A program made the position numbers and the translations under genes. Of a stretch of DNA of 32,026 nt, positions 11,451 to 32,026 are shown piece by piece (position 1 is the first letter of the stretch; every line of letters starts with the position of its first letter). Origin of the DNA: a virus; the IMG/VR virus record IMGVR_UViG_3300021964_000287, positions 1-32,026 of that record, one strand, 5' to 3'. The notes beneath the pieces were generated by a model. The model was not told the DNA's origin, ran no database searches, and was given only the letters and a program-made list of their open reading frames with translations.

Positions 11451-12089
11451 TTATACTCCGACTGTAGTTCCGGTGTCAACTGTATCTGGGAATGGGTTTC
11501 CTGCTACTGTTCTACCGTTGATATCGTTATCACCTTCATAATGTGTTGCGTTATCATAACGTATCTGCATAGTAACTGTTACTTGCTCGTTTGTAGCATA
11601 GTCACCGTCACTGTAGTCTACGTTAGTTAAGAAACATCCTTCCAAGAACCAAACTTCAGTTGCTCCAGCATTAACACCATCTAATACTTCAATTTGCAAA
11701 TCAAACTTATAGTCTGAACCTGCGGCTGGAGTAGTTTGTTGGAAATGGTTAACCTGTCTTTGGACTTGTGAACCTACAGATTTTGCTACCTGGTTGGTTA
11801 TGTCGTCCCTTACAACTACTGAAATTTGCTCCCAAGCATGTTTACCTTGTAGGTAACTTCTTGAGTTATAACTATCAATAATTATTTCTTCATAAGTAAT
11901 TTTAGGTCTAGTAACGTTTTGTACGTTTTGAGTCAATATTTTTGCCTCTGGTGAACCACCAAAGTTGTTTAAAAAACTAACCCTAAATCTATACTTCAGT
12001 TTCGGCATTAAAATACCGGAACCAGTTGCACCCGTTACCGGAACTCCAAACTTACTTTTGGTTTCGTTTGTTGCACTTGATACTGCCAT
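11451..12089 (-). CDS. gp19: Tail tube protein gp19
   Basis: 212 aa; T4 gp19 is about 163 aa. This is the subunit that stacks into the inner tail tube. Typical segments: LMPKLKYRFRVSFLNNFGG near the start, VQNVTRPKITYEEIIIDSYN, WEQISVVVRDDI, and the late EGCFLTNVDYSDGDYATNEQ strand pair. It follows gp18 in T4 order, except that a small cassette sits between them. The start has AGGAG, and a late octamer 32 bases upstream gives a leader of roughly 25 bases. The Shine-Dalgarno lies inside a short hairpin. Confidence 0.92.
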   Translation of the reverse strand: MAVSSATNETKSKFGVPVTGATGSGILMPKLKYRFRVSFLNNFGGSPEAKILTQNVQNVTRPKITYEEIIIDSYNSRSYLQGKHAWEQISVVVRDDITNQVAKSVGSQVQRQVNHFQQTTPAAGSDYKFDLQIEVLDGVNAGATEVWFLEGCFLTNVDYSDGDYATNEQVTVTMQIRYDNATHYEGDNDINGRTVAGNPFPDTVDTGTTVGV

Positions 12090-12120: not shown

Positions 12121-12128
12121 TATTTATC
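12121..12128 (-). promoter_or_regulatory. Late promoter octamer GATAAATA (gp19)
   Basis: GATAAATA 32 bases before the gp19 ATG. It gives gp19 and the downstream baseplate/ACP genes their own late start after the terminator at 12172-12198. Confidence 0.8.
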
Positions 12129-12171: not shown

Positions 12172-12198
12172 AAAAAAAGGGCAATTAAATGCCCTTTT
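12172..12198 (-). terminator. Rho-independent terminator after the 195-aa cassette gene
   Basis: Minus-strand stem AAAAGGGCA / TGCCCTTTT (9 bp perfect, 6-base loop) ending in a run of seven T. It lies 15 bases past the stop of the cassette gene and before the gp19 promoter. Confidence 0.9.
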
Positions 12199-12213
12199 AA
12201 ATGCTTTTTCTCC

Positions 12214-12798
12214 CTATGCTGACTCTTTTATTCTGTTTACAGCAAGGTCACTTCCATCTATAATGTCTGTGATGTCTGTAAATCCGTATGACTCAACTAT
12301 GTAGTATCTTGTTTCAGGAATAATATCATCTAAATCCATTACTTCGTAACCAATTTGTGGTTGCTCAGCAATAATATCACCTACTGATAATGAGTGCATG
12401 TCTCTAAACGTTACTTGCTCGCCGTCTTTTCTAGTGATTGTTTTCATTACATAGTTTGATACATGTTTATCAAATACAATATCTTCACCTGTTTCTTCAT
12501 TTAGATAACACTGGTTAAGAATTGACATAACTTCGTTTTTACTTTTTACAGTATAATCTATATTATCACCCTGTGTGAGTCCACAAAATCTACCGTCTAC
12601 TTCACATACTTTTGTGTAGTGTGAGAAGAATTCGGATTTAAAGTTAATTTTTCTGTCATCGCCTCTGCCATGCATTGTTTCCATTTTTGCATGATATAGT
12701 GGATATTTTTTAGCGGCGCCTGTGTGTCCGCCTTCGTTTGAATTGACGTAATCGTGTATTTCGTCAGTAACTTTGATTTGATAAATGTTGTATTGCAT
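12214..12798 (-). CDS. Early-type cassette gene between gp18 and gp19, unknown function, 194 aa
   Basis: Not recognised. The protein is hydrophilic with mixed helix and strand, no membrane segment, and aromatic or charged stretches such as MQYNIYQIKVTDEIHDYVN at the start and EVMDLDDIIPETRYYIVESY near the end. I start it at 12798 because GGGAG lies 8 bases upstream; the upstream ATG at 12813 would put that site inside the coding region. It has its own sigma70-type promoter and terminator and lies between two late structural genes, so it is regulated separately from them, like a cargo gene. An early host-takeover role is possible but unsupported by motifs. Confidence 0.75.
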   Translation of the reverse strand: MQYNIYQIKVTDEIHDYVNSNEGGHTGAAKKYPLYHAKMETMHGRGDDRKINFKSEFFSHYTKVCEVDGRFCGLTQGDNIDYTVKSKNEVMSILNQCYLNEETGEDIVFDKHVSNYVMKTITRKDGEQVTFRDMHSLSVGDIIAEQPQIGYEVMDLDDIIPETRYYIVESYGFTDITDIIDGSDLAVNRIKESA

Positions 12799-12834
12799 AA
12801 ATTTGACTCCCATCTTTTTATTTAATATACAACT

Positions 12835-12862
12835 AGTATAGCAGATTTTGTGATATTGTCAA
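12835..12862 (-). promoter_or_regulatory. Sigma70-type (early) promoter for the cassette gene
   Basis: TTGACA (12862-12857), 16-bp spacer, TATACT (12840-12835). The same CTTGACA...GCTATACT arrangement precedes the 74-aa gene at 19194. Confidence 0.82.
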
Positions 12863-12875
12863 GCCTTTTAGTCAT

Positions 12876-12903
12876 AAAAAAAGGCGCCTAAAAGACGCCT
12901 TTT
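12876..12903 (-). terminator. Rho-independent terminator after gp18
   Basis: Minus-strand stem AAAAGGCGTC / GGCGCCTTTT (10 bp with one U-G pair, 5-base loop) followed by more T, 15 bases past the gp18 stop. It separates sheath transcription from the early cassette. Confidence 0.9.
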
Positions 12904-12918
12904 AATAAGTTTTTTAAC

Positions 12919-15675
12919 CTATGCTGTTGAGCCCAAAGTGTTTTGGATTCTGATCGGTATGTAAATAAACTCTACTGCTTTCACTGGTTGTACAGCGATA
13001 TCAATGTATAGTTCGTTTCTATCGATTCTAGCCGCGGTGTTATTTGTTGTGTCACAAACTGTAACAAAGTCAAACAATCCACGTTGTTGTACTAACTGAG
13101 CTAGTAATCTGTCTACAACTACCTTAGCATTTGCTCTTGTAACCTCATCATTTGGTTCAAACAAGAATGGTTTTACTGCATCATCAAGTTGTTCTCTGAT
13201 GTAAATAACCAATCTTGAAACATTAACTCTGTCCAATGCACTTGATACTGAGTTAAGTGTTTTCTGACCAAATACTGCAATTCCTCTGCCTGGGAAGTTT
13301 CCAATTGGGTTAATTTTGTTAAGGTAAAGACTGTCTCTTTGTCCTTCACTTAAACTAACTGTTTGGAATTCTCCAGTAGTTGCATCTAGGTAACCGGTAG
13401 AAGTAGCATTATTAACTGTACCTCTTTGGAAACCTGCTGGTGCAAACCATGGGAAAGCAACTGAGTCATTAAATGCAATAGTTCTCAAAGCCATATGTGA
13501 AGCAGGAACCATGATAGTTGTACCATCTAGGTTAGTTGATAATCCGTGTGGATAATAAACTGCCGCTTGTGATGATGCACTAACAAGTCCATCTTCACCA
13601 TTTTCACTTGCTACAGCATTATTGGTTGCCCAATTTTGAGTACTTGTTGCGTCTGCGGATAGTCTTAATGGAGCATCTGCAATACAAAAGACGGTGTCTT
13701 TTCTATTAACACTTAAAGCCAACATTTCGTCTAAACATTCAGTATATCCTGGAGTAGAACAAATATTAAATCTGTTTGTCTCATTAAGGATTTCTTGGTT
13801 AGCAGTTAATGTGGCCTGCATAGCAGTTACAATAACTTTACGTTGAGCTTTACGCATCATGTATGGTGAACCATCAGTTTTATTACCTGAGTAGTCTTTC
13901 CATAAACTATTTGTTGCATCGTACTGTTTAACGTTTCCAACTGAAGCCATTTTATTCCATGCTAACATACCACTTGGGTATAATGCCGCATTTGGAAGAC
14001 CGTTTGCTGTTGATATTAAACTACTTGTACTACTTGATCTAAAGTCTGCAAAAATGATGCCATCACTAGTAACTTGGTCTGCATTGTCTACCAATACCCA
14101 AGTACTTGATGCTGATCTTTTATAGATTTTAGGGAAGTTTTCTAAGTCACTGCTGTCGATCCATAAATCACCAGTTGATAGTCCTGTTGAGCCATCACTC
14201 TGTGTTGTAGGAGCCGAAGCGGAAAACTGTACATCATTTGAGTACGTTGCCCATGTACCTGCATTTTGATATAACATATCAATATTAGTATTAGCAACAT
14301 TATTATCGTACCATAATGTACCTTCCACAGCAGGTCCTGTAATTGCTGTATCTTTTGCTTCGTAACTTAATGCTTTAAAATTACTAGTTGTTCCAACTGT
14401 TAAGTTAAGGTCTGATGGGTCATATCCTGCAACGTTACCTGCTGTTAAGCCAATATCTTTACCATCTGAAGTAGTAATTGTAACTTTACCATCAACATTA
14501 CTTGCACTTGCTGTTGTTGAACTAATTCCTGTTGCACCATTAATACTTGCAACTATTTCATCTACTGATACTGAACTTACGTTTGCACCTGTAAATGTTA
14601 CTGGAATATCTGCCGCACCATTAATACTTAAATTAATAGATACTTTACTAGCATGTGTACTAAAGTCTTGGCCGTCAGCCAATGCAGTTGAACTTGCTAC
14701 TGAATTTGTAGCACTTCCGTTATGCCTTTTTAATGTTAGACTTGCTGTTGCTCCGCCGTCTGCCCATAAATCACCAATTACTGGAGATGTATATGTATTT
14801 GCATAAACAACACTTGAGTCTTCTTCCATAACAACACTATCAGTTGTAAAACTGCTTGTTGTAGTTGAGTACTCTTTTACAATAATATTTGAACCATTGT
14901 TAGATGCTGTTTCTTGTAAGAACACATCAGCAGTTGCTAATGCTCCACCACCACTTTTTAATGTAGGTATTGCTAAATGAGTTGCAAACTGGAAGTCACC
15001 TGCTGATCCTGGAACAGCACTTGCCCAGTTACTTGATCCCACGTTATACCAAACACCACTGATTTTTTCATAAAAATCAATTGTGGATTTAGTTGCACCG
15101 GCATTTGTAAAGTAAGTTACGGCAAAATCACCGTTTGTACCAAAAGCCGCTTTAGGGAAACCTGTACCTGAATCTGTTTCAGATGCAGAAGGTTTTTTAA
15201 CTGTTTGTAATACCCATGCAGAACCATCATAACGTTTTAGTCCCCATGTAGTTAAACTTGTGTCTAACCAGTAGGCTCCGTTTGCTGGTGATTTTGTTGG
15301 TATTGTTGAACTTGCATCAAGTTCATTTAAGTCAACGTCTGCTCTTAGTACATAGGCTCTGTTTGCGATGCCTAGGAAACTATAAGCGGCCAGTAGACCG
15401 TATTCATTCTGTTCTGCGCCATGTAAAGGTGTAGCACCACTTGTTTTAAAGACTGGATTACCAAAGTTCTGTAGTAATTCTCTTTGTGAAGTGATTTGAT
15501 ACAATTTACCGGCAGTTGCTGATGTTGTATATGCGGCTGTTGATGTTCCGTCTGGGGCCTTTTTGTCTTGTGCAGTTGCAATCACTATTAAAGGGACTGA
15601 ACCAGCACCAGCGGCCGCGTAAAACGATTCATCTGATACACTTATACTTACACCAGGGCTTATTAATGTTGCCAT
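12919..15675 (-). CDS. gp18: Tail sheath protein gp18 with surface insertions
   Basis: The 918-aa contractile sheath subunit; T4 gp18 is 659 aa. The N-terminus MATLISPGVSISVSDES and the C-terminal domain (about 600-918, with VVDRLLAQLVQQRGLFDFV and VEFIYIPIRIQNTLG) are the conserved sheath core. The middle (about 125-600) is a large insertion with several short aromatic units of the type GDLWxD...ydGsxW (near 131-155, 301-320, 451-477, 502-529) and one domain (about 345-412, LSINGAADIPVTF ... DGKVTITTSDGKDIGL) resembling the flagellin/hook IN motif. These probably face outwards. The start has AGGAG and the leader begins at a late octamer. A terminator follows. Confidence 0.93.
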   Translation of the reverse strand: MATLISPGVSISVSDESFYAAAGAGSVPLIVIATAQDKKAPDGTSTAAYTTSATAGKLYQITSQRELLQNFGNPVFKTSGATPLHGAEQNEYGLLAAYSFLGIANRAYVLRADVDLNELDASSTIPTKSPANGAYWLDTSLTTWGLKRYDGSAWVLQTVKKPSASETDSGTGFPKAAFGTNGDFAVTYFTNAGATKSTIDFYEKISGVWYNVGSSNWASAVPGSAGDFQFATHLAIPTLKSGGGALATADVFLQETASNNGSNIIVKEYSTTTSSFTTDSVVMEEDSSVVYANTYTSPVIGDLWADGGATASLTLKRHNGSATNSVASSTALADGQDFSTHASKVSINLSINGAADIPVTFTGANVSSVSVDEIVASINGATGISSTTASASNVDGKVTITTSDGKDIGLTAGNVAGYDPSDLNLTVGTTSNFKALSYEAKDTAITGPAVEGTLWYDNNVANTNIDMLYQNAGTWATYSNDVQFSASAPTTQSDGSTGLSTGDLWIDSSDLENFPKIYKRSASSTWVLVDNADQVTSDGIIFADFRSSSTSSLISTANGLPNAALYPSGMLAWNKMASVGNVKQYDATNSLWKDYSGNKTDGSPYMMRKAQRKVIVTAMQATLTANQEILNETNRFNICSTPGYTECLDEMLALSVNRKDTVFCIADAPLRLSADATSTQNWATNNAVASENGEDGLVSASSQAAVYYPHGLSTNLDGTTIMVPASHMALRTIAFNDSVAFPWFAPAGFQRGTVNNATSTGYLDATTGEFQTVSLSEGQRDSLYLNKINPIGNFPGRGIAVFGQKTLNSVSSALDRVNVSRLVIYIREQLDDAVKPFLFEPNDEVTRANAKVVVDRLLAQLVQQRGLFDFVTVCDTTNNTAARIDRNELYIDIAVQPVKAVEFIYIPIRIQNTLGSTA

Positions 15676-16443: not shown

Positions 16444-17028
16444 TTAAAATCCTGTTTCTTTGTAAAATTTTATGTCTTCTGCATATTTAGTATTAAATTG
16501 TACTAATTGGTCTTCTGATAATTCTACATTTATATTAGCTCTACTGGTATTTATTTTGGGAAATTTAGTATAATCATAATCAGGTAATATTTTATGAAGT
16601 CCACCCACTAAATCTTTAAAATTAATTAAATGTTGTGCCTTTAAATTTTTGTCTTTATCAAATACGTTCATAAAAGGATGAAAAATACTTATAGAGTGAA
16701 ATGCCATATTTATTTCTGGGTCGATTTTCATATTATTTTTCTTTAAAACTTCTCCCATCTCTTTACTAGTATAATTGTTATTTAAACACATGTCAATCAT
16801 TTCATTTTTTGTAAACTCTTTAACACCCCTTGATAAAAAATAAGTGATGTTAGAAATAAATCTTTCCCTTGGCTCTCTTAAAATAGTAAAAGATATTGAA
16901 CCTGCAGGAATATCTGCATTAAGTGTGACTTGATTATTTTGGTGACCGTATCTGATACAGTTTTTGTAAAAATTCTTAGTGCTTGTAGAACCTGATTTAG
17001 GAATATGTTGATGTATAACCTGAGACAT
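16444..17028 (-). CDS. Sulfotransferase family protein
   Basis: 194 aa with the two PAPS-binding signatures of sulfotransferases: HIPKSGSTSTKNFY (8-21, the 5'-phosphosulfate loop with K11) and TILREPRERFISNITYFLSR (48-67, the 3'-phosphate site with R51 and S59). Such enzymes move sulfate from PAPS to hydroxyls or amines of glycans or small molecules. It is shorter than many carbohydrate sulfotransferases, but both sites and the C-terminal helices are present. It is packed between gp13 and the kinase with no gaps, with AGGA close to the ATG, and is transcribed from the gp13 late promoter. The substrate is unknown; a cell-surface or virion glycan fits the other sugar enzymes in the window. Confidence 0.78.
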   Translation of the reverse strand: MSQVIHQHIPKSGSTSTKNFYKNCIRYGHQNNQVTLNADIPAGSISFTILREPRERFISNITYFLSRGVKEFTKNEMIDMCLNNNYTSKEMGEVLKKNNMKIDPEINMAFHSISIFHPFMNVFDKDKNLKAQHLINFKDLVGGLHKILPDYDYTKFPKINTSRANINVELSEDQLVQFNTKYAEDIKFYKETGF

Positions 17029-17813: not shown

Positions 17814-18962
17814 TTAAAATGCCTTAAGAATGATTGTATTCTCATTAATTCTACCATTCATTTTAATACCTGTAGTAGTGAGCTCGTCAAATGATTTAGT
17901 AAATTTAGTTTTTGCTTTTCCTGTCCAGTTGCTTATTTGCTCTTTGGGTTTACGCAATGTTTTTTGTACACTAAGCTCTGAATCGAAGTCCTGTATTGTG
18001 GTGCCTTTTACTGTTAGTCCGTCTCTGCCAATGCCTTTAGGGTCTTTGCTTATGGCATGATATACACCTAATTTCCTAGTTTTAGTATTATACACCCATA
18101 ACTCATTAGCATGAACAACTTCTGTGGGATGAATACTGGCTATACCTAATTCACTATCATTAATCTGAAACTTTAATTTCTTAATTATTGCATCTTTGCT
18201 TCTTGCTTTTGGCTTACGAGCTTTTCTGGTACTTGCTTTTGTCTTGATAATTGTATCGCATGATGTATTAATCTTTTCAAAAAACTCCACAAACTCCTTT
18301 CTGAGTTTAGGTGTAAAGTGAGCATACCCTTCTTTAATATCAGGATCTTTCCATTCCTTAACTTCTAGAGCCTCTTTATAGGCTCCCTCAAAGTCTTCTT
18401 TAATAAGTTTGGCATGAGCGGCCTTTATCTCTGGACTATAAGACACCATTTCTTTATACGGCTCAAAACTCTTTATGTCAAAAGTTCCTTCAGTTAAACA
18501 ATCTATATAATATTCCCATTCTGCACAAAGCCTTTCAACTTGCATTTTCATCCTATCCTGAATGCTAATGACTATTTTATCTGCTGATTTTTCCTTCTTT
18601 TCCTGTACGACTTTAGAACCACGATTCAACCATTCCTCTTTTCTTTTTTGTAGATGGTTTAAAATATTTTCAGGCATATATCCTAATTTATATTCTATAT
18701 ATGTGGAAATGCCTGTAGCCGAAAAAGCCCAATCCGGATTTGCTAAGATAGTTTTTTGTTCTTCTTTAGACCAGCCTGATTTATCTTTAACCCATTTTCT
18801 AACTGAGCTTACTAATTTCTTTTTGGGGATTTCTGTTCTAACGAAGTACTCGCATTTGTGGAATGCCGCATCTTGTTCCTCGACTTCTGTTAATGCCCTA
18901 AATTTATTCCATTCAGGCTCTTTAGTTATGTAGATACTTCGTTCTTTTTTTCTTTTCGCCAT
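17814..18962 (-). CDS. Conserved phage protein of unknown function, 382 aa
   Basis: No function recognised, though its C-terminal part (IASIHPTEVVHANELWVYN, LTVKGTTIQDFD, NGRINENTIILKAF) reminds me of a protein shared by marine T4-like phages. It is lysine-rich throughout, with a helical N-terminal two thirds containing a Trp/Tyr-rich stretch (AEWEYYIDCLTEGTFD), a very basic linker near 250-275 (KASTRKARKPKARSK) and a beta-rich end, so nucleic-acid binding is possible. I start at 18962 (MAKRKKERS), with AAGGA 11 bases upstream; a longer frame to 19022 would overlap the upstream gene and lacks a site. It is probably read from the early promoter at 19220-19247. Confidence 0.75.
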   Translation of the reverse strand: MAKRKKERSIYITKEPEWNKFRALTEVEEQDAAFHKCEYFVRTEIPKKKLVSSVRKWVKDKSGWSKEEQKTILANPDWAFSATGISTYIEYKLGYMPENILNHLQKRKEEWLNRGSKVVQEKKEKSADKIVISIQDRMKMQVERLCAEWEYYIDCLTEGTFDIKSFEPYKEMVSYSPEIKAAHAKLIKEDFEGAYKEALEVKEWKDPDIKEGYAHFTPKLRKEFVEFFEKINTSCDTIIKTKASTRKARKPKARSKDAIIKKLKFQINDSELGIASIHPTEVVHANELWVYNTKTRKLGVYHAISKDPKGIGRDGLTVKGTTIQDFDSELSVQKTLRKPKEQISNWTGKAKTKFTKSFDELTTTGIKMNGRINENTIILKAF

Positions 18963-19253: not shown

Positions 19254-20210
19254 TTATTTTCCTCGGCTGAAGTTTTTTCTTATATTGTGAGGTTTATCAT
19301 TTTCTATAATGTCCTTCCAGACTGCAATAGTTTTGTCTAAGCCTTCACTAATTTCTACCTTTGGGAACCAACCAAGTCTGGTTGTGATTTTATGATTTGT
19401 GCTGTTAAGTAAATAAATTTCTCCAGGACGTTTAGGTTTGGTATTCCAATTTACATGTCCGTTCCAATCTAACTTATCAGCAATAAGTTTTACATAATCT
19501 TTTATTTTAATTGCATTATCAGGTCCTATACAAAATATCTCACCCTGACATTTGTCAGGATTTTCGATTACTGCCTGCCAGGCATCTAATAAATCATCAA
19601 TGTATATAAAGTTTCTGTATGGCTCACCATATCCTAAATTTATCTCTTTAGGGTTTTTTAACATTTGTGTAATAATTTGTTCTGTCACAAAAAAGTCATT
19701 ATCTTTTCTGCCATAAGCATTAGTTTGTCTAATTGCAGTAAATGGTAATCCATAACTTCTGTGTGCATATTCTAAATACTTTTCACAGCCATATTTTGCA
19801 ACGGCGTAGGGGGCATTAGGATTAGGAGGTGTTGCTTCATTAAATGCAATAATACCTTCTTCTTTGCCGTCTCTGATAATGTCACTAATAGGTTGCCATC
19901 CGTATACTTCCATTGTACTTGCAAACACAAAGTTTTTTAAATTAGGCAGTTCTTTTGCAACTTCTATTAGGTTTACAGTACCAGTATAATTAATATCACT
20001 AAATGTAATTTGCTCATAAAAGCTCTGCTCTACTTCTGTTCTTGCCGCTAAATGTACAATAATTTCAGGATCAAATGTTGAAATTTGCATAGCAACTTTG
20101 GCATGGTCCCTTAAATCTTCTGTTAAAAATCCTAACTCATGATTACCTTTTAGTCTTTCAACCATGTGCTGGCCTATAAATCCGTCTGATCCTGTAATAA
20201 ATATTCTCAT
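19254..20210 (-). CDS. NAD-dependent sugar-nucleotide epimerase/dehydratase
   Basis: A 318-aa extended short-chain dehydrogenase. It has the NAD-binding TGSDGFIG (6-13) at the N-terminus, the VHLAARTEV segment after beta 4, active-site S98/T99 and Y135-xxx-K139 (PYAVAKYG), and the family segment NFIYIDDLLDAW (200-211). Length fits UDP- or GDP-sugar 4-epimerases, dehydratases or reductases; which sugar cannot be told. It works in the cytoplasm on nucleotide sugars. The ATG overlaps the oxygenase stop by 4 bases (ATGA), so it ends the amidinotransferase-oxygenase-oxygenase-epimerase operon that starts at the late octamer 22327-22334. Confidence 0.88.
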   Translation of the reverse strand: MRIFITGSDGFIGQHMVERLKGNHELGFLTEDLRDHAKVAMQISTFDPEIIVHLAARTEVEQSFYEQITFSDINYTGTVNLIEVAKELPNLKNFVFASTMEVYGWQPISDIIRDGKEEGIIAFNEATPPNPNAPYAVAKYGCEKYLEYAHRSYGLPFTAIRQTNAYGRKDNDFFVTEQIITQMLKNPKEINLGYGEPYRNFIYIDDLLDAWQAVIENPDKCQGEIFCIGPDNAIKIKDYVKLIADKLDWNGHVNWNTKPKRPGEIYLLNSTNHKITTRLGWFPKVEISEGLDKTIAVWKDIIENDKPHNIRKNFSRGK

Positions 20211-20752
20211 GTTAAATCCTTCTCCTTTGCATACCCTGTAAGTTGCATTGTAAATCTAGGTTCGTAACCTAAATTAGCCACCGAATGAATTAGGTTTGGT
20301 CTTATTATAGTAAAATCACCTTTCTTATAATCTAACCAACTATCATTCTCTATTTCTATATAATGCCCCATTAATCTATCTTGTAAAAATAAATTTACTC
20401 TAACAGGCACCATTCCCTTTGTGTCCATTTCTTCTCGTTCCGCCTTTTTACGCATCTTGTATAGTGTATCAACATGCGGAGCAATAAATCGTCCAGGCAT
20501 CAGTTTATTTACTGTAACTATGCCATAGTGCAACCAATCACTAAAATTATCGTATACGCCATGTACCCAACTTGGACAATCATCTTCAAATACTTGCCAT
20601 ACCCAAGGTGCTTCATATGGATAATCTGGTACTGCTACACCCCTATCTTTCCAAAAACCACCACTATAAACTGTATTTGTATGTTCTGTAAACTTTAATC
20701 TATATAACATTTCATCTGTTATATGACTTATATCAACATGTCCTTTATGCAT
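20207..20752 (-). CDS. 2OG-Fe(II) oxygenase-like protein A, 181 aa
   Basis: A small cupin-fold dioxygenase. H93-x-D95 (APHVDTLYK) and H156 (LIHSVANLG) form the iron triad, and R166 (YEPRFTMQL) is placed to bind 2-oxoglutarate. The strand GHYIEIEND and the DYKKGDF turn complete the fold. It is homologous to the next gene (164 aa) along its length, so the pair arose by duplication. It overlaps that gene by 8 bases and the epimerase by 4. Likely reaction: hydroxylation of a small molecule, amino acid or sugar; the adjacent amidinotransferase and aminotransferase suggest a guanidino or amino compound (inference). Confidence 0.72.
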   Translation of the reverse strand: MHKGHVDISHITDEMLYRLKFTEHTNTVYSGGFWKDRGVAVPDYPYEAPWVWQVFEDDCPSWVHGVYDNFSDWLHYGIVTVNKLMPGRFIAPHVDTLYKMRKKAEREEMDTKGMVPVRVNLFLQDRLMGHYIEIENDSWLDYKKGDFTIIRPNLIHSVANLGYEPRFTMQLTGYAKEKDLT

Positions 20753-21239
20753 TTTTAAGCACCGTAATCTGTGCAGAATAAAAAGGTTCCTCTCCCATGT
20801 TACCTGCTATATGCCAATCATCTACACCAAACTTAACCCAGTCACCTGCTTTCCATTTTACAAAAGGTTGATCGTGTACTTCATAATAGTGTCCACGTTT
20901 CCAATCTTCTAAAAATATCAAGTAACGATAACTTTCGCCTTCACCGTGTTCTTGTTTTAGTTTAAAATGTTTATCAACATGATGTGGAATTGTTTGTCCA
21001 GGTTCTATGTTAATAACACTAACAACATGATGGTCGTGTCCTTGAGGTATTTTTAATGCTAAGTCATGTACCCATTGCGGTGAAGTTTCAAACATCTGCC
21101 ATATACTGCTATTATGTTTTGTATAATATTTTTCTACAGCAGGTGTCTGTTGATAACATTGAAAGTAGTCGTCAAAGTTTAACTGGCTCATCTGTTCATG
21201 AGTTATTCCAAAGTTATCAATTTTTCCGTATTTAATCAC
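20745..21239 (-). CDS. 2OG-Fe(II) oxygenase-like protein B, 164 aa (GTG start)
   Basis: Paralogue of the 181-aa oxygenase. Iron ligands H87-x-D89 (PHHVDKHFK) and H143 (DDWHIAGNMG) are kept, and RGHYYEVHDQPF and WKAGDWVKFG align with the neighbour. The arginine expected to hold 2-oxoglutarate is replaced by Phe (EEPFYSAQ against YEPRFTMQ), so the cosubstrate or activity may differ. The start is GTG at 21239, overlapping the amidinotransferase stop by 8 bases with no clear Shine-Dalgarno, so translation is probably coupled. An internal Met at residue 17 is an alternative but would cut the conserved N-terminus. Confidence 0.68.
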   Translation of the reverse strand: MIKYGKIDNFGITHEQMSQLNFDDYFQCYQQTPAVEKYYTKHNSSIWQMFETSPQWVHDLALKIPQGHDHHVVSVINIEPGQTIPHHVDKHFKLKQEHGEGESYRYLIFLEDWKRGHYYEVHDQPFVKWKAGDWVKFGVDDWHIAGNMGEEPFYSAQITVLKNA

Positions 21240-22293
21240 AGTAACTTTCTAATGTGCCTTTACGCCTAAGGTCAAGTGTAGCACAATGTATACCACCAGA
21301 CAGCGTCATAGAATGTCTAAACTGTACAGGTACACTATCTATACCGTACTTGTCAAGTTCCCTCATTAGAGGCTCTTGTGCTGAGTCTAACACTACAGTA
21401 TTCTCATCTACACTAAGTAAGTTCATTCCAATGTAAGGCGAACATGGAGGCATATACCCTTGCTCAGCAAGTTTACTGCCTTGTACTACGCAATCGTCAA
21501 ACCAAATTTTATCCCATTTCTTAAACATTTCAGGACAATTTTCTGGCGTGACCCTGCTACTATTCATTAGTACTAGTCCTGGTCTAAGCGGAACAATAGT
21601 GCTGTCAAAATGTGCAAAACTATATAGTTCACTATAATGCATTTTGTAACCCATAGGCTCAACTAAACGTTTTAACCACTGGTAGCCTTTCATGTTTCCT
21701 GAGTTACTAACTTGATATAATAAGTCTCTACCAACTCTCACAATATTAGGTGCATCAAAACAAATCTCATGATTTAATAATGTTGGTTTGTCTTCAATGT
21801 CTTCAAATGTGTACATGTCATCATGTAAGTTTGGTTTAGGTGCTTGTAACCATAATGCACCATCTTCAAATGCTTCGTACATTATGTCTTCGTATAATTT
21901 TGTTTCAAAATATCTTGCTCTTACAGGAGTAGGAGTTTCAATAAGCATATCTCCTAATGGTAAAATTAAGTCTCTAGGACACCAACTGTACCAGCCTTTT
22001 GTGTTCCAACCTTGTCCAATGTCATAATTTACATTGTCCCAATCTATAATTTTGGGTCTGCGTACTTTTACACCCATTTTTGTAAGTGCATCTGCAAGTC
22101 CGTCCGCATCTTCATTTGCTTCGTCAATTACCCATTGCGGATAAGTGCCTTCTAATTTTTCTACATCTTCTTTTTTAAAATTTGCGTAACTGAAACTTCT
22201 TGCGGATATGTCAGTTGCAATTCTGCTGTGGTGGGCATGTCCAACGATGATCTCTTCTAAAGGATCCCAATCGTTGTGGGAATTTACTATCAT
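21232..22293 (-). CDS. Amidinotransferase (glycine/inosamine amidinotransferase family)
   Basis: A 353-aa enzyme of the family that moves the amidino group of arginine to an amine, as in glycine amidinotransferase and streptomycin-pathway inosamine-phosphate amidinotransferase. The catalytic triad is complete: D180 (EICFDAPNIVRVGRD), H228 (SFAHFDSTIVPLRPGLVL) and nucleophile C337 (SGGIHCATLDLRRKG). The N-terminus NSHNDWDPLEEIIVGHA and CPRDLILPLGDMLIETP are also typical. The acceptor is unknown; glycine or an amino-sugar are the main candidates. It is the first gene after a consensus TATAAATA late promoter, with AGGAG 6 bases from the ATG, and is coupled to the two oxygenases downstream. Confidence 0.92.
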   Translation of the reverse strand: MIVNSHNDWDPLEEIIVGHAHHSRIATDISARSFSYANFKKEDVEKLEGTYPQWVIDEANEDADGLADALTKMGVKVRRPKIIDWDNVNYDIGQGWNTKGWYSWCPRDLILPLGDMLIETPTPVRARYFETKLYEDIMYEAFEDGALWLQAPKPNLHDDMYTFEDIEDKPTLLNHEICFDAPNIVRVGRDLLYQVSNSGNMKGYQWLKRLVEPMGYKMHYSELYSFAHFDSTIVPLRPGLVLMNSSRVTPENCPEMFKKWDKIWFDDCVVQGSKLAEQGYMPPCSPYIGMNLLSVDENTVVLDSAQEPLMRELDKYGIDSVPVQFRHSMTLSGGIHCATLDLRRKGTLESYCD

Positions 22294-22311
22294 TATGTCT
22301 CCTGTGTGTAT

Positions 22312-22323
22312 AGTTATATAACT
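22312..22323 (-). promoter_or_regulatory. Perfect 12-bp palindrome at the predicted transcript start
   Basis: AGTTATATAACT begins 4 bases after the late octamer, at the expected start of the amidinotransferase mRNA. It could be an operator or a very short 5' hairpin; no known site is recognised. Confidence 0.35.
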
Positions 22324-22326
22324 TAC

Positions 22327-22334
22327 TATTTATA
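22327..22334 (-). promoter_or_regulatory. Late promoter octamer TATAAATA (amidinotransferase operon)
   Basis: Exact T4 late consensus TATAAATA, the only fully consensus copy seen here, 34 bases before ATG 22293. It places the amidinotransferase, two oxygenases and epimerase under late control. Confidence 0.85.
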
Positions 22335-22344
22335 AGTTTAAATA

Positions 22345-23220
22345 CTAATCTGCTAACCATTCAGAAACACAGACTCTGTAATTTCCAGATACTCCTCTGT
22401 TAAATTCTGAGTGCCTAATTTCATCTCCAAGTCCGAATATAATGGTGTCTGTATAAACTAAATTTTGATCATCGCAAATATCTTCATATGCAGATCTATA
22501 TTTTTCCCAATTATAATCAGGAGAGAAATTTCTCATGTACTCTACGCCCAATGCCATACTGTATTCATTCTGCATTTTAACTTCGTTAAGCATACTCACA
22601 CCGTCATCTACATAGTTTCGTGTAAATCTTATTCCTACTCTGTGGTTTTCTAGTGTGCAGAAAGGTTTACTTAAACTGCATGTCACTTCCTGTATTGCAG
22701 GAAAGTCGGATAAATTAATATGTACATTTTTTGATATACCCCAATATGCTAAATCTAAACAAACAGGAATATTATATGCATTACAAATACGCATTAAATT
22801 CTCAAAGTCAGGGTGCATACAGCCATAATCACTAAAAGGAGCACTTATAATTAATGCATGTAAATCTGGACCTCTTAATGTGCCTTCTAAATGATGCGGT
22901 GAAGGTATAGTAGTAAACTCTACATGTTTTCCTAAACAAGCATGATACTGAAAGTCTCCTGCTAAAACAATTATTTCCCTGTCTTTACTATGCCTTAAAA
23001 TAAACTGATCAAATGTTTGGCTGGTTCCCTGAGTATAATCTGCATGAGAAAAATTGTCTAGACCCTGCAAACTTTTGGTATTACTATAGTTTATCCATTC
23101 TCTCCATACAGATTGATACTGGTCTAGTGTAGGTATTTTTAATTCATTCTTATCAATATGGAAATGAAAGTCTGTTATTTCTTTATTCTTTATTGGTCTT
23201 GCACCTCTAATTGCAGGCAT
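22345..23220 (-). CDS. PLP-dependent aminotransferase-like protein (fold type I)
   Basis: 291 aa with the landmarks of class I/II aminotransferases in the right order: phosphate-binding TQGTSQ (63-68), aromatic FQYHAC, ISAPFSDYGCMHPD (125-138), D156 and Y159 (VCLDLAYWG) which contact the PLP ring, the Schiff-base lysine K185 (CSLSKPF), and R194 (NHRVGIRF). It is shorter than the usual ~400 aa, mainly at the C-terminus, so the small domain is reduced. Reaction and amino donor are not predictable. The start is certain: GAGGAGGTGG, the strongest Shine-Dalgarno in the window, ends 4 bases before ATG 23220, inside the last codons of the upstream gene (14-base overlap). Product supply to the adjacent amidinotransferase is plausible. 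Confidence 0.72.
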   Translation of the reverse strand: MPAIRGARPIKNKEITDFHFHIDKNELKIPTLDQYQSVWREWINYSNTKSLQGLDNFSHADYTQGTSQTFDQFILRHSKDREIIVLAGDFQYHACLGKHVEFTTIPSPHHLEGTLRGPDLHALIISAPFSDYGCMHPDFENLMRICNAYNIPVCLDLAYWGISKNVHINLSDFPAIQEVTCSLSKPFCTLENHRVGIRFTRNYVDDGVSMLNEVKMQNEYSMALGVEYMRNFSPDYNWEKYRSAYEDICDDQNLVYTDTIIFGLGDEIRHSEFNRGVSGNYRVCVSEWLAD

Positions 23221-24574
23221 CTACCACCTCCTCAAAAAAATTATTATTGCTTATACGTCTAAATTTTCCAGTTGTTACGTTTTTATAATTGTGAGCTACA
23301 TCATTTTTTAGTAATTTCATCATATTTAAAAAATTTGTATCCGACATACTTCTGATATTGCTAATAGTATTAAAAAATCCTTGCACTCTTAATTTTAATG
23401 TATTTTGTTTGTTAAAACTTATATCCCAAAATTTATCAAATGTTTTAAAATCTAGTTTATGTAACTCTTCATATAAGCCTTTACATCCTACAGTAATAAA
23501 AGGTTTTTTAAAATACATAGGAAACATCTGTTTTTCATCTATATACCCATATCCGTACGGCTCCCCTCCAGGTATTAACGCAATATGACCTGTTTCATAA
23601 AGCCAAGGACCTGGTACTCCTCTGTCGTTTAAAGTATCAAGGTCTATGATATGTGGCCTACTGTATAAGACTTGTGTAATGCCAGACATTTCCTTTTCAG
23701 TTAATTTTTCTTTTTTTAAAAGGTCATGCATAGCAGTTGCCATTAGATTTGTATGATACGGATATTCCTCTTTAGTATCAGGGTTACTATATACCCTTGC
23801 TAAAAAACTAGGATTCATAGAATAATTTCTAGAATAAGTTACATCCTCTAATCTATTTCCTTTTTGCTCAATGTAATATGAGATTAAAAGTCTATGACTC
23901 CTGCAATTTCTCATAGTTAGTAGAAATTTATTTTTTAAATTTTTATACTCGTCTAACCCTTCTGGAGGTTCTATTTGATTTAAGTTTACATGAGTGTTTT
24001 TACTCAATATACTGGTAATATAATGTACTCTGTCTAAATACCATAGTTTATGTATTTTATGTACATTTTTACAATATTTTAAATGTTTATCATAATTTCC
24101 AAAAAAATCTTCTGTTTCTCCTGACCCACTAATTATAAATTGTGCATGAGGGAATAAACTTGACAACTTTACAAAATACATATTCGCATCAAAGAAATAT
24201 GGTTCAGTGCTTGTATAAACTAAAAATACTGTGTTAGGCAAATTATGGCCCACACATTCTGCTATCTTATCATCTATCAACTTACCAAAATCTGACAAGG
24301 TAAATTTTTCACCTGCAGATTCATAGGATAAAGGGAAACTTTGAAAGTCTATAGGAAATAAATTAATTGAATCTTTAGGGACATTGCCATCTAAATTATG
24401 TATTACATTAAATTTAAATTTTTCATTATCAATATTTCTACTATCATTTAATTGGCACAAGACTTCTAAAGGAAGTGGCTCTCTTCCTAACCATCCTATT
24501 TCATTATGCTTTCTTACTACCTCGTCTTCAAACTGAAAGCCGTTATGTAGATATACAATATTAATATTTTTCAT
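23207..24574 (-). CDS. Glycosyltransferase-like protein, 455 aa
   Basis: The C-terminal part (about 310-450) has the pattern of a fucosyltransferase-like group common in large viruses. Residues GYGYIDEKQMFPMYFKKPFI are followed by a V-G-x-x-G-L-Y-E-E-L turn, LDFKTFDKFWDISF, and a helical end with KNDVAHNYKN. Upstream, FLLTMRNCRSHRLLISYYIE is the usual entry to the nucleotide-binding half. The N-terminal ~200 residues are unassigned. The probable role is sugar transfer to a glycan or virion component, but no catalytic residue can be confirmed. The ATG lies 10 bases past the tRNA 3' end and its AAGGA overlaps the encoded CCA. It is probably co-transcribed with the tRNA and the aminotransferase. 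Confidence 0.5.
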   Translation of the reverse strand: MKNINIVYLHNGFQFEDEVVRKHNEIGWLGREPLPLEVLCQLNDSRNIDNEKFKFNVIHNLDGNVPKDSINLFPIDFQSFPLSYESAGEKFTLSDFGKLIDDKIAECVGHNLPNTVFLVYTSTEPYFFDANMYFVKLSSLFPHAQFIISGSGETEDFFGNYDKHLKYCKNVHKIHKLWYLDRVHYITSILSKNTHVNLNQIEPPEGLDEYKNLKNKFLLTMRNCRSHRLLISYYIEQKGNRLEDVTYSRNYSMNPSFLARVYSNPDTKEEYPYHTNLMATAMHDLLKKEKLTEKEMSGITQVLYSRPHIIDLDTLNDRGVPGPWLYETGHIALIPGGEPYGYGYIDEKQMFPMYFKKPFITVGCKGLYEELHKLDFKTFDKFWDISFNKQNTLKLRVQGFFNTISNIRSMSDTNFLNMMKLLKNDVAHNYKNVTTGKFRRISNNNFFEEVVDACN

Positions 24575-24583
24575 TTTAGTCCT

Positions 24584-24673
24584 TGGCGGAAAGGGAGGGA
24601 TTCGAACCCTCGGTACAGTTACCCGTACTCCTCCTTAGCAGGGAGACGCTTTAAGCCGCTCAGCCACCTTTCC
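24584..24673 (-). tRNA. tRNA-Ser (anticodon GCT), CCA encoded
   Basis: Minus-strand 90-base class II tRNA. Acceptor GGAAAGG/CCTTTCC, D arm GCTGAGCGGCTTAAAGC, anticodon loop CTGCTAA with GCT at 24639-24637, variable arm stem GTAC/GTAC, T arm GAGGG-TTCGAAT-CCCTC, discriminator G and encoded CCA (24586-24584). It reads AGC/AGT serine codons, which are frequent in these AT-rich genes. The T27-G43 pair is a wobble; all other stems are regular. Confidence 0.96.
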
Positions 24674-24680
24674 TAACCAG

Positions 24681-24688
24681 TATTTATT
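24681..24688 (-). promoter_or_regulatory. Late promoter octamer AATAAATA upstream of the tRNA
   Basis: AATAAATA ends 7 bases before the tRNA 5' end, so a late transcript would begin within about two bases of the mature tRNA. A TATAAT lies further upstream (24697-24692) but has no convincing -35 box. Confidence 0.6.
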
Positions 24689-24717
24689 AATATTATATGC
24701 TATGTTAATTTATTACT

Positions 24718-24725
24718 GATAAATA
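24718..24725 (+). promoter_or_regulatory. Late promoter octamer GATAAATA, leaderless spacing (radical SAM gene)
   Basis: GATAAATA, then AACTG, then ATG 24731. It is divergent from the tRNA octamer 29 bases away. Confidence 0.8.
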
Positions 24726-24730
24726 AACTG

Positions 24731-25867
24731 ATGTACACAAAACACATAAACAATATCCATGTAGAAGTCACAGATAGATGTAATGCAGAGTGTCCTGTTT
24801 GTCCAAGATCGCAGAGCGGCGGTGAAACATTTCCTTATGTAAAGGACCATGAATTATCTGTAGATTATTTTAAATTAATTGGTCATGAGTTTTTATCTCA
24901 AATAGGATTTTGGAACTTTTGTGGGGTAAAAGGAGATCCTGCATCAGCACAAGATTTATTTGAAATATTTGACTATATACTAGAATGTAATCCTGACACA
25001 GAAATTGTTGTTAGGACTAACGGTGGCGCCAGAAATGAAAAGTTTTGGAGTCGCATAGGTCAACTTTTTAAAGATACAAATTGTAGAATTATTTGGAGTG
25101 TAGATGGTTGGGAGGACACGAATCACATATATAGAAAAAATGTAAAATGGTCCAAACTATATAATAATATGATGTCCTATATAGAAACAGGAGCACAGTC
25201 TTTATGGGAATTTAATATTTTTGCTCATAATGAAAAAGATATTCCTCTTATTAAAAGTTTTTGTCATCAATATAATATTGAGTTTAGGCAACGAGAACCG
25301 TTTGGTTTTAAAAGAGTTGATAGGAAGGCAAGATATGATAAAGAAGAAGATGCCGTAAGTAGATTAAACAATAATAACCTAGTTGATATTAAAACTATTC
25401 CTGTATATGATAAAACAGGAGATGGCCTTACATCTAAACTTGCATACACTATAAAACCTGCCGGAGTCCCACAAGAAAATATAATTGATAATCACCCTAA
25501 TACAACTTCTATTAAAAATTATTTACCTGGTGTGTACGACTTAGATGCTTATACACCATTAAAAGGTACTAAAAAAATAGTTGACTGCCAATCTTTAAGA
25601 GATAAAAGCCAAGAAATATATTTAGACTCTAATGGTATGATTTTCCCTTGTTGCTATACTGCTGGTAAATTTCATATGGGAGACGAACAATTAAATAGTA
25701 TGTATAGGCCTTATAAGAAAAATTTAAGAGTTACAGAATCTAATAACATATACGATATTTTAAACTTAGACCTATTTAAAAAAGTAATGCCAGACGGAAT
25801 GAATGGTAAGTTAGACGACGATATAGGCTACTGTGTTACTTGTGTACAACATTGTAAGGCATTTTAA
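24731..25867 (+). CDS. Radical SAM enzyme with cysteine-rich (SPASM-like) C-terminus
   Basis: 378 aa. The radical SAM cluster motif C17-xxx-C21-xx-C24 (DRCNAECPVCPR) follows an N-terminal HVEVT strand, and the barrel continues with IVVRTNGG and IIWSVDGWED. The C-terminal part has C286, IYLDSNGMIFPCCYTAG (C307, C308) and C368-xx-C371-xxx-C375, the arrangement of a SPASM or twitch auxiliary iron-sulfur domain. Such enzymes modify peptides, sugars or small molecules by radical chemistry; no peptide substrate gene is apparent nearby. The start is fixed by the octamer at 5 bases; there is no Shine-Dalgarno. It heads the rightward operon but is separated from gp14 by that gene's own late promoter. 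Confidence 0.88.
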   Translation: MYTKHINNIHVEVTDRCNAECPVCPRSQSGGETFPYVKDHELSVDYFKLIGHEFLSQIGFWNFCGVKGDPASAQDLFEIFDYILECNPDTEIVVRTNGGARNEKFWSRIGQLFKDTNCRIIWSVDGWEDTNHIYRKNVKWSKLYNNMMSYIETGAQSLWEFNIFAHNEKDIPLIKSFCHQYNIEFRQREPFGFKRVDRKARYDKEEDAVSRLNNNNLVDIKTIPVYDKTGDGLTSKLAYTIKPAGVPQENIIDNHPNTTSIKNYLPGVYDLDAYTPLKGTKKIVDCQSLRDKSQEIYLDSNGMIFPCCYTAGKFHMGDEQLNSMYRPYKKNLRVTESNNIYDILNLDLFKKVMPDGMNGKLDDDIGYCVTCVQHCKAF

Positions 25868-30092: not shown

Positions 30093-32026
30093 CTATTTAG
30101 TTGTTTTACGTTCTATACCGTCCCATTCGCCCTTAGGCATAGGTTGTTTAATTCTTTCTTTATATAAATCTGCTAAAACAGGATTCCAGTTATGCTGATC
30201 TATAATTTCTATTTGATGTGCAACTGTGCTCCATTCTCTGTTTTGATATGCATCAACCATTCTGTTTACTACTCTTGCATACTTGTGATCATTTAGTATA
30301 GTATAAATTGTTACAGGATCAGTTTGTCCTTTTACAGCAATTTTATCTAGCATTACTAAATTTTCTGGAGTGTTTATTTGTTTTAGTGTATGCTCAGTAA
30401 ACATAAAGAATACACCATACTCTTTTGTTTGTGCTTCTAGTCTTGCCGCTAAGTTTACACTATCACCTAATACAGTATAATCAAAACGTTGATTACTTCC
30501 CATATTACCTACAACTGCGTCACCTGTATTAATACCTATACCAACACCCAACTCCATAAGTCCATCTTCTTTAAGCTCTTTGTTAAGATTTTTAAGTTCT
30601 ACTTCCATTTCCTGTGCCGTCTCTATTGCCAACTGAGCATGATTATCAACATCCAGTGGAGCATTCCATATAGCCATTAAGGCATCACCTATATACTTGT
30701 CTATAGTTCCTTCTTTACGCATTACTAGATCAGTCATTGGCGTCATATATCTGTTTATAAGTTTACCTAAGCCTTGTGGGTCTGTTTTAAACTGTTCCGA
30801 TATAGGAGTAAATCCGCGAATGTCTGAGAACAAGTAGGTCATTGTTCTTGTGTCTCCACCTAAACGTAATAGGCTTGGATCTTTTTGTAACTTCTTAACC
30901 ATTGCTGGTGCTAGGTAATGCTCAAATTGTTTCTTAATTTGTTCTCGTAATTTAAATTGTTTGTAGAAGTTATTAAATGCCGCCTGTGTAAATATTAAGA
31001 AGCCGCCTATTACAGGGAATGTAGCATCTAATAATACTAATTGTGACGTATATAAATGTACACTATAATACCCTATTCCGCCCAAGATAAGCAACGATAC
31101 TGGCGCCGTTAGTAGTAAAGGGAGTCTATATACTGCTACTGCTACTAGAACCATTATCAGAAGGGCTATCACAAGCTCGTAGAACGCGGCTGTTTGGCTT
31201 CGTGTTATGTTACTGCCACTTATAAAGTTCTGTAGCATATGAGCTTGTATCTGCTGTGGATATAAGTTTCCTCTAGGCGTAGGTACCGGATTAGCAATAC
31301 CTTCTGCTGTGACACCCACTATAACCATTTTACCTGCTAGATCTGGTATGCTGTCTGCTCCGGTATATTCTATAGTTTCAAATTTGTTATTAAATCTTAT
31401 ATATGCTGTGCCATCAGGCTGAGTAACAATAGGTTCAAATCCTTTAACAGCAATTTCCTGTATACCTATTTCACTTGTTTTAACTATATAACTTTTATTG
31501 CCAGTTTTAACTCTCAACATTTCCACAGCAAAACTAGGATAAATTTTTTCACCTACTGTGATTGCTAGTGGATATGTTCTTGTTTGATTGTCTGGTTGTG
31601 GTGCAGAAGCATTTACTCCTTTTCCATTTGACATTACTTCCAGCATAGGTACATTAGTTACTAAGTTAGGCCACTTTAACAAATAGTCTTTTGCTGGTAC
31701 AGGACCAATAGTTCCTGTGCCTATATGAGGGCCTGATGTTTTTATACCTTTAACACTAGGTGTTTGGCTTAACACATTATAATTAATAGGGTTTCGTCTT
31801 GCTCCAGGAACATTTACTTTATTTTGTTCTAAAAAACTAGCAAAAGTTGGATCTCCACCAAAACGATCTTCTTCTGGAAACATTATGGTCCAACCCACCA
31901 CTCCACTATTTTTACTAGCAACATCTACAATTAGTTGAGCATAGTATTGTCTTGGAAAAGGATATTGTCCATAAGTTGCTAAAGTGTTTTCACCAAAGTT
32001 TAACAATACAACATCTTCACTTTGTA
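30093..32026 (-). CDS. CHASE2-domain membrane adenylate/guanylate cyclase, class III (partial at right edge)
   Basis: The frame is open to base 32026, so the N-terminus is missing; at least 643 residues are present (numbers below count from the TTG at 32006). Residues 1-270 match a CHASE2 extracytoplasmic sensor (SEDVVLLNFGENTLATYG, then YPFPRQYYAQL, later DLAGKMVIVGVTAEG). Three membrane helices follow (about 276-345), then a class III cyclase domain: metal ligands D395 (FSDIRGFT) and D441 (YIGDALMAIW), base-selecting K437 and T511, and transition-state N518 and R522 (SVNLAARLE). K plus T points to an ATP-using class IIIb enzyme making cAMP (inference). All catalytic residues are kept. The last codons overlap the next gene's late promoter, tying it to the phage genome. 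Confidence 0.92.
   Translation of the reverse strand, partial: QSEDVVLLNFGENTLATYGQYPFPRQYYAQLIVDVASKNSGVVGWTIMFPEEDRFGGDPTFASFLEQNKVNVPGARRNPINYNVLSQTPSVKGIKTSGPHIGTGTIGPVPAKDYLLKWPNLVTNVPMLEVMSNGKGVNASAPQPDNQTRTYPLAITVGEKIYPSFAVEMLRVKTGNKSYIVKTSEIGIQEIAVKGFEPIVTQPDGTAYIRFNNKFETIEYTGADSIPDLAGKMVIVGVTAEGIANPVPTPRGNLYPQQIQAHMLQNFISGSNITRSQTAAFYELVIALLIMVLVAVAVYRLPLLLTAPVSLLILGGIGYYSVHLYTSQLVLLDATFPVIGGFLIFTQAAFNNFYKQFKLREQIKKQFEHYLAPAMVKKLQKDPSLLRLGGDTRTMTYLFSDIRGFTPISEQFKTDPQGLGKLINRYMTPMTDLVMRKEGTIDKYIGDALMAIWNAPLDVDNHAQLAIETAQEMEVELKNLNKELKEDGLMELGVGIGINTGDAVVGNMGSNQRFDYTVLGDSVNLAARLEAQTKEYGVFFMFTEHTLKQINTPENLVMLDKIAVKGQTDPVTIYTILNDHKYARVVNRMVDAYQNREWSTVAHQIEIIDQHNWNPVLADLYKERIKQPMPKGEWDGIERKTTK
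30094..30101 (-). promoter_or_regulatory. Late promoter octamer ACTAAATA, leaderless spacing (119-aa gene)
   Basis: ACTAAATA, then GTAGT, then ATG 30088. The octamer spans the last sense codons and part of the TAG stop of the cyclase gene. One mismatch from NATAAATA. Confidence 0.68.

What the first reader, a model, noticed from the sequence alone, without database searches (positions are those of the whole stretch)
12172..12903. Self-contained early cassette inserted between sheath and tube genes
Reading leftwards from gp18: terminator, TTGACA-16-TATACT promoter, one 194-aa gene with GGGAG, then a second strong terminator, then the gp19 late promoter. Two terminators insulate a host-sigma transcribed gene inside a late structural block. 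The site behaves like a cargo slot, and the protein is unrecognised.
Basis: partly seen in the sequence, partly recalled or inferred. Interest (0 to 1): 0.62.

Follow-up and report, generated by a model that had tools for sequence, protein, structure and literature searches.

The report
Early YodL-like gene in tail operon
A T4-like marine phage carries, between its tail-sheath and tail-tube genes, a small gene with its own host-type promoter and its own terminator; the site is empty in sister phages and holds different versions of the gene in close relatives, and the protein is distantly related to YodL, a bacterial protein that disturbs cell shape.

Summary
Between gp18 (sheath) and gp19 (tube) the minus strand reads: terminator T1, TTGACA-16-TATACT promoter, GGGAG, a 194-aa gene, terminator T2, then gp19's late promoter. 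Relatives show the promoter is real: the early promoter plus leader is conserved upstream of nearly all homologues, in several unrelated genome contexts, and also serves other early genes. The 'cargo slot' reading is largely right. Near relatives (gp19 at least 94% identical) all carry the gene here; 22 sister-clade contigs have a 126-152 bp empty site with one terminator. Closely similar flanks hold two very different alleles (about 57% identical), some with extra antisense genes. Homologues also sit in early regions and in a baseplate operon. 'Unrecognised' is wrong: the family is a divergent YodL-like family (PF14191; profile-profile 96%; one distant member passes Pfam's cut-off). Best mechanism: a host-transcribed early effector, perhaps acting on MreB-driven cell elongation (inferred only), moved between phages by recombination at promoter-terminator seams. 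Such seams (PeSLs) are already described in T4-type phages. Novelty: new variant of a known kind. Nothing here measured expression or function.

The parts
12879..12903 (-). terminator T1 after gp18 (AAAAGGCGTCTTTTAGGCGCCTTTT + T-run); counterpart of the single terminator of the empty site
   Evidence: the same terminator sequence lies in the empty site of L054
12835..12862 (-). sigma70-type extended -10 early promoter TTGACA-N16-TATACT
12807..12811 (-). Shine-Dalgarno GGGAG, 8 nt before the ATG
   Evidence: leader conserved in relatives
12214..12798 (-). 194-aa YodL-like early gene (called CAS in the report)
12175..12198 (-). terminator T2, the cassette's own
12121..12128 (-). late promoter GATAAATA of gp19
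   Evidence: kept in empty and filled sites
11451..12089 (-). gp19 tail tube, flank downstream of the cassette
   Evidence: phrog_4542 E 1e-52
12919..15675 (-). gp18 tail sheath, flank upstream of the cassette
   Evidence: phrog_10581 E 2.7e-237

Best explanation
A movable early-gene module. Host RNA polymerase transcribes the 194-aa gene from its own strong promoter soon after infection, T2 stops that transcript before the gp19 late promoter, and T1 stops late gp18 transcripts before the gene. The protein is a divergent YodL-like protein and most likely acts on the host early in infection; the best specific guess is interference with MreB-dependent cell elongation or shape, as shown genetically for B. 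subtilis YodL. The module entered the gp18-gp19 junction in the ancestor of this clade, and its alleles have since been exchanged by homologous recombination in the closely similar flanks and the repeated terminator and promoter-leader sequences. Shown: anatomy, empty and filled sites, allele replacement, homologues at several loci, remote YodL homology, purifying selection. Inferred: early timing, insulation, recombination route, host target.
For: Empty sites: in 22 sister contigs gp18 and gp19 are 126-152 bp apart with one terminator and the late promoter. Filled sites: 821-829 bp with T1 + module + T2 in near relatives; in the gp19-only search all 6 loci with at least 95% identity carry it. 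Allele exchange: the window against L031 or L178 shows DNA identity of 77-98% in the last 600 bases of gp18, 48-75% in most of the gene, and 82-98% from T2 through gp19; proteins gp19 94-97%, CAS 57-58%. Extra antisense genes at the same junction in L031/L032, L178, L033, L139. Interleaving of junction and elsewhere copies on the CAS tree: 7 changes, at least 2 forced by well-supported branches. Promoter and leader conserved in unrelated contexts and shared with other early genes; a terminator directly before such promoters in 14 of 71, against 2 of 400 random stretches. YodL: 15 of 21 members weakly match PF14191; L180 scores 27.1 bits against a cut-off of 24; hhalign against five plasmid or phage YodL domains 96.1%, E 3.6e-9 over 99 columns, N- to C-terminus; a 35-aa C-terminal query finds YodL-annotated plasmid proteins. 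YodL genetically interacts with MreB (PMC5512222), and T7 Gp0.6, MbiA and YodL are listed as MreB-directed proteins (PMC6965359).
Against: No expression data. The window protein itself is below Pfam's YodL cut-off (13.4 against 24 bits), and with the near-family alignment the profile match covers only the C-terminal 33 columns at 82.7%. No solved fold matches. The MreB target is carried over from one distant relative; the polyvalent-protein paper proposes anchoring to the cytoskeleton rather than inhibition. The phage host is unknown. In the near clade the gene family is fixed at the site, so recent gain or loss is not shown.
Confidence: 0.6

Rival explanations
1. Early counter-defence (for example anti-restriction) protein: the YodL-like domain protects phage DNA or blocks a host defence, and the variable slot reflects changing host defences.
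For: YodL domains occur in conjugative-element polyvalent proteins beside counter-restriction domains; one of the YodL plasmid proteins found here is annotated antirestriction protein ArdA; allele replacement fits an arms race.
Against: The authors of the polyvalent survey argue that YodL, unlike ArdA, might not be counter-restriction; no trustworthy PADLOC match.
Confidence: 0.25
2. Clade-specific gene inherited vertically after one insertion; the apparent allele replacement is fast divergence in place, and expression is partly late by read-through.
For: All near-clade junctions seen carry it; synonymous divergence is high in general.
Against: Two CAS types 55-60% identical between gp19 copies 94-97% identical, with DNA identity rising sharply at T2; junction and elsewhere copies interleave on the tree; synonymous differences of CAS exceed those of gp19 in the same pairs (0.47-0.52 against 0.29-0.30).
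Confidence: 0.12
3. Late or virion-associated gene that merely sits in the tail operon (structural accessory).
For: Position between two structural genes; the AF2 model gave only marginal likeness (Z 2.2-2.7) to phage neck proteins.
Against: No late promoter; own early promoter; homologues beside replication-type genes (exonuclease, ligase); Z values are at noise level.
Confidence: 0.04

Closest known systems
PeSL (promoter-early stem-loop) modules of T4-type phages (Arbiol 2010; Comeau 2014, cited in PMC4503421)
   Same: early promoter joined to a terminator stem-loop in intergenic DNA, associated with shuffling of small genes between related T4-like phages
   Different: here the module lies inside the late tail operon rather than a hyperplastic early region, and carries one defined gene family; circle formation or recombination between PeSLs was not tested. 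The two original papers are not in the library, so details rest on PMC4503421 and memory
YodL-like domain, Pfam PF14191 (B. subtilis YodL; Firmicutes conjugative-element proteins)
   Same: N-terminal IYQ(I/L)K strand, LE(E/D)(V/I) helix before the FN/LN pair, HSLSV(S/G)D motif and V(D/E)SxGF C-terminus; 99-column profile match, 96%
   Different: two insertions (helical part at about residues 12-50 and a strand pair at about 113-132), MHSLSVGD instead of HSLSVSD, solo phage early gene; window protein below Pfam cut-off
Salicola phage SCTP-2 gene 303 (122 aa)
   Same: only homologue found in a named phage (E 2e-4); likely the 122-aa BFVD top hit (that record's identity was not verified)
   Different: shorter, lacks the insertions, jumbo phage, other neighbourhood
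T7 Gp0.6 and other MreB-directed small proteins
   Same: proposed analogy: a phage protein acting on cell-shape machinery (PMC6965359)
   Different: no sequence relation tested; analogy only

Membership tests
PeSL promoter-terminator module of T4-type phages | strong sigma70-like early promoter | tested here: met
   (sequence evidence; strength and timing not measured)
PeSL promoter-terminator module of T4-type phages | terminator stem-loop directly joined to the promoter | tested here: met
   T1 12879-12903 ends 16 nt before the -35; energies; the composite recurs before other early promoters, 14 of 71 against 2 of 400
PeSL promoter-terminator module of T4-type phages | gene gain, loss or replacement at the module | tested here: met
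   empty sites, allele replacement, extra genes
PeSL promoter-terminator module of T4-type phages | recombination between PeSL copies, mini-circles | not testable with these tools
   needs infected-cell DNA
YodL-like domain (PF14191) | score over the curated cut-off, window protein | tested here: not met
   13.4 against 24 bits; so the window protein is called YodL-like by family, not filed as a Pfam member
YodL-like domain (PF14191) | score over the curated cut-off, any family member | tested here: met
   L180, 27.1 bits, E 8.7e-6; L179 23.6 just below
YodL-like domain (PF14191) | profile-profile similarity over the whole domain | tested here: met
   hhalign 96.1%, E 3.6e-9, 99 columns; 82.7%, 33 columns with the near family alone
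YodL-like domain (PF14191) | same fold as a solved YodL | not testable with these tools
   no solved relative found by sequence or fold search
YodL-like domain (PF14191) | acts on MreB / cell shape | not testable with these tools
   literature only
T4-type late gene | GATAAATA/TATAAATA late promoter just upstream | tested here: not met

The most novel reading that the evidence does not exclude
A hitherto undescribed family of YodL-like early inhibitors of host cell-shape or elongation machinery, carried across marine T4-like phages as a promoter-gene-terminator plug-in module that can settle even inside late structural operons and is swapped there allele for allele.
Probability: 0.25. Interest if true: 0.7.

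Novelty: new variant of a known kind. Interest (0 to 1): 0.5.

Why it matters
It shows, with empty, filled and replaced alleles at one precise junction, how an early host-directed gene can live inside a conserved late operon, apparently without disturbing it, and it links a widespread but unnamed marine phage gene family to a domain with a testable host target. The gp18-gp19 junction gives a ready-made site for comparing allele effects.

Tried and rejected
DNA megablast of the junction against named phages: no match. Direct tblastn of the window protein against phages gave chance hits: the frames under H1 and H2 read as a recombinase-like and a glycoside-hydrolase-like protein, judged by eye. 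Genome-collection scans found MHSLSVGD stretches but none confirmed as relatives. PDB by sequence, Foldseek and VIA-align with two models (pLDDT 82 and 86): nothing above noise, which does not exclude a known fold. PHROGs, NCBIfam and PADLOC: no trustworthy family. Search for two CAS copies in one contig: none found, but contigs are fragments. The two PeSL papers and the YodL/YisK paper are not held.

Full report
What is there. On the minus strand, between gp18 (12919-15675, tail sheath) and gp19 (11451-12089, tail tube), lie terminator T1 (12879-12903), a sigma70-type promoter TTGACA-16-TATACT with extended -10 (12862-12835), GGGAG, a 194-aa gene (12798-12214; 'CAS' below), terminator T2 (12175-12198) and gp19's late promoter GATAAATA (12128). 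Both hairpins are clearly more stable than shuffles (z -3.25, -3.56). All nine GATAAATA in the window stand upstream of a gene start; none serves CAS.

Is the promoter real. A consensus scan alone would not prove it (9 sites found, 7.1 expected). The proof is comparative: homologues of CAS in many viral contigs (86 relatives) carry the same TTGAC(A/C/T) and TATAAT-type boxes and, in many, an almost fixed leader ending AAAAAGGTAGGAGTTTTTATG, while neighbouring genes differ. By script 45 of 51 distinct upstream regions match; four of the other six have -10 TATCAT by eye, and only L176 and L177 lack it (the script's register of the -10 is off in some rows because TATAATATAT repeats). Similar promoter-leaders precede other early genes such as the MoxR-like ATPase gene and its neighbour.

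Slot. The gp19-only search is unbiased for CAS: all 6 loci with at least 95% gp19 identity carry it, none of the others with the junction in view does. Junction length is 821-829 bp with CAS alone, 126-152 bp in 22 sister contigs, and 15-119 bp in 45 more distant ones; one distant contig (L083) has 1,722 bp with an unrelated glycine-rich ORF. The empty site reads gp18 stop, one terminator, an ATTAAAAC...GTTAAT stretch, GATAAATA, gp19; the filled site has that terminator (T1), then promoter, CAS and a second terminator (T2), then the same ATTAAAAC...GATAAATA. So T2 is best read as the cassette's terminator and T1 as the old one. T1 of the window has the sequence of the terminator in the empty site of L054.

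Replacement. At this same junction L031, L032, L033, L139 and L178 hold a short CAS type 57-60% identical to the window's, while gp19 stays 94-97% identical. DNA identity of L031 and L178 to the window is 77-98% in the last 600 bases of gp18, 48-75% in most of CAS, and 82-98% from T2 through gp19. These contigs also hold one or two antisense small genes between T1 and the CAS promoter (KSGFEIR type; MTKYEEAR type; an IYRG-repeat gene in L139), with late-promoter-like boxes by eye. The CAS tree needs 7 changes between junction and elsewhere, at least 2 forced. Synonymous differences of CAS exceed those of gp19 in the same pairs, and dN/dS is 0.09-0.18.

Other homes. CAS sits between a glycosyltransferase and an exonuclease (L009, L018, L022), near a DNA-ligase-like gene (L005, L025), near a MoxR-like ATPase gene (L147, L153), and, in L142, L145 and L026-L028, in a plus-strand island between baseplate wedge genes (gp25/gp6 type) and a baseplate hub lysozyme gene (gp5 type) on the other strand. 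That last case is a second late structural operon hosting it.

What the protein is. Close members match Pfam YodL weakly (15 of 21, best 0.0016); distant ones more strongly, one over the cut-off. Five YodL domains from plasmids or a phage record that pass Pfam align with the CAS family end to end, 96.1%, E 3.6e-9. The only named-phage homologue is SCTP-2 gene 303. The AF2 model is confident (pLDDT 85.6) but matches no solved fold.

How it likely works. Inferred: host polymerase makes the protein early; T1 and T2 separate it from the late genes. YodL of B. subtilis interacts genetically with MreB and is reviewed as an MreB-targeting protein with T7 Gp0.6 and MbiA, so early interference with cell elongation is the leading guess; counter-defence is the main rival. 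The movement fits PeSL modules, promoter-terminator units reported to mediate gene shuffling between T4-like phages (PMC4503421); terminator-plus-early-promoter composites recur here before other genes.

Limits. Contigs are fragments, the host is unknown, there are no expression or functional data, 'early' rests on promoter class, and the MreB link rests on one remote relative.

Noticed in passing
window 30093-32006 (-): CHASE2 sensor plus class III adenylate/guanylate cyclase gene (Pfam 1.8e-26 and 5.3e-20) at the contig end. 173 viral contigs encode relatives, many 84-94% identical, including contigs of the same phage group (L200, L258) and a 250 kb contig: a phage-borne sensor cyclase that looks widespread and deserves its own study.
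   Followed up: partly
L139, L178, L033, L031, L032 between gp18 and CAS: Small antisense genes (KSGFEIRA type, MTKYEEAR type, IYRG repeats) with late-promoter-like boxes; KSGFEIR genes also lie next to CAS in other contexts (L147, L153, L166, L168). No Pfam or PHROGs family for those tested.
   Followed up: partly
L141, L147, L149, L152, L153, L167, L172: CAS homologue followed by a 62-79 aa gene, a MoxR-like ATPase (phrog_1297) and a gene matched by phrog_1314: a recurrent early operon with several early-type promoters.
   Followed up: partly
window 19254-25867: Cargo block with an epimerase/GDP-mannose dehydratase, a radical SAM-like gene and several unrecognised genes near a tRNA-Ser; a sulfotransferase-like gene at 16444-17028.
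   Followed up: no
window 19247 (-): A second TTGACA...TATACT promoter-like site with the same TG extension, between the gene at 19254-20210 and the gene ending at 17814; its conservation was not tested.
   Followed up: no
L083:3690-5420: In a distant T4-like contig the same gp18-gp19 junction holds a 400-plus-residue glycine-rich ORF and a small ORF instead.
   Followed up: no
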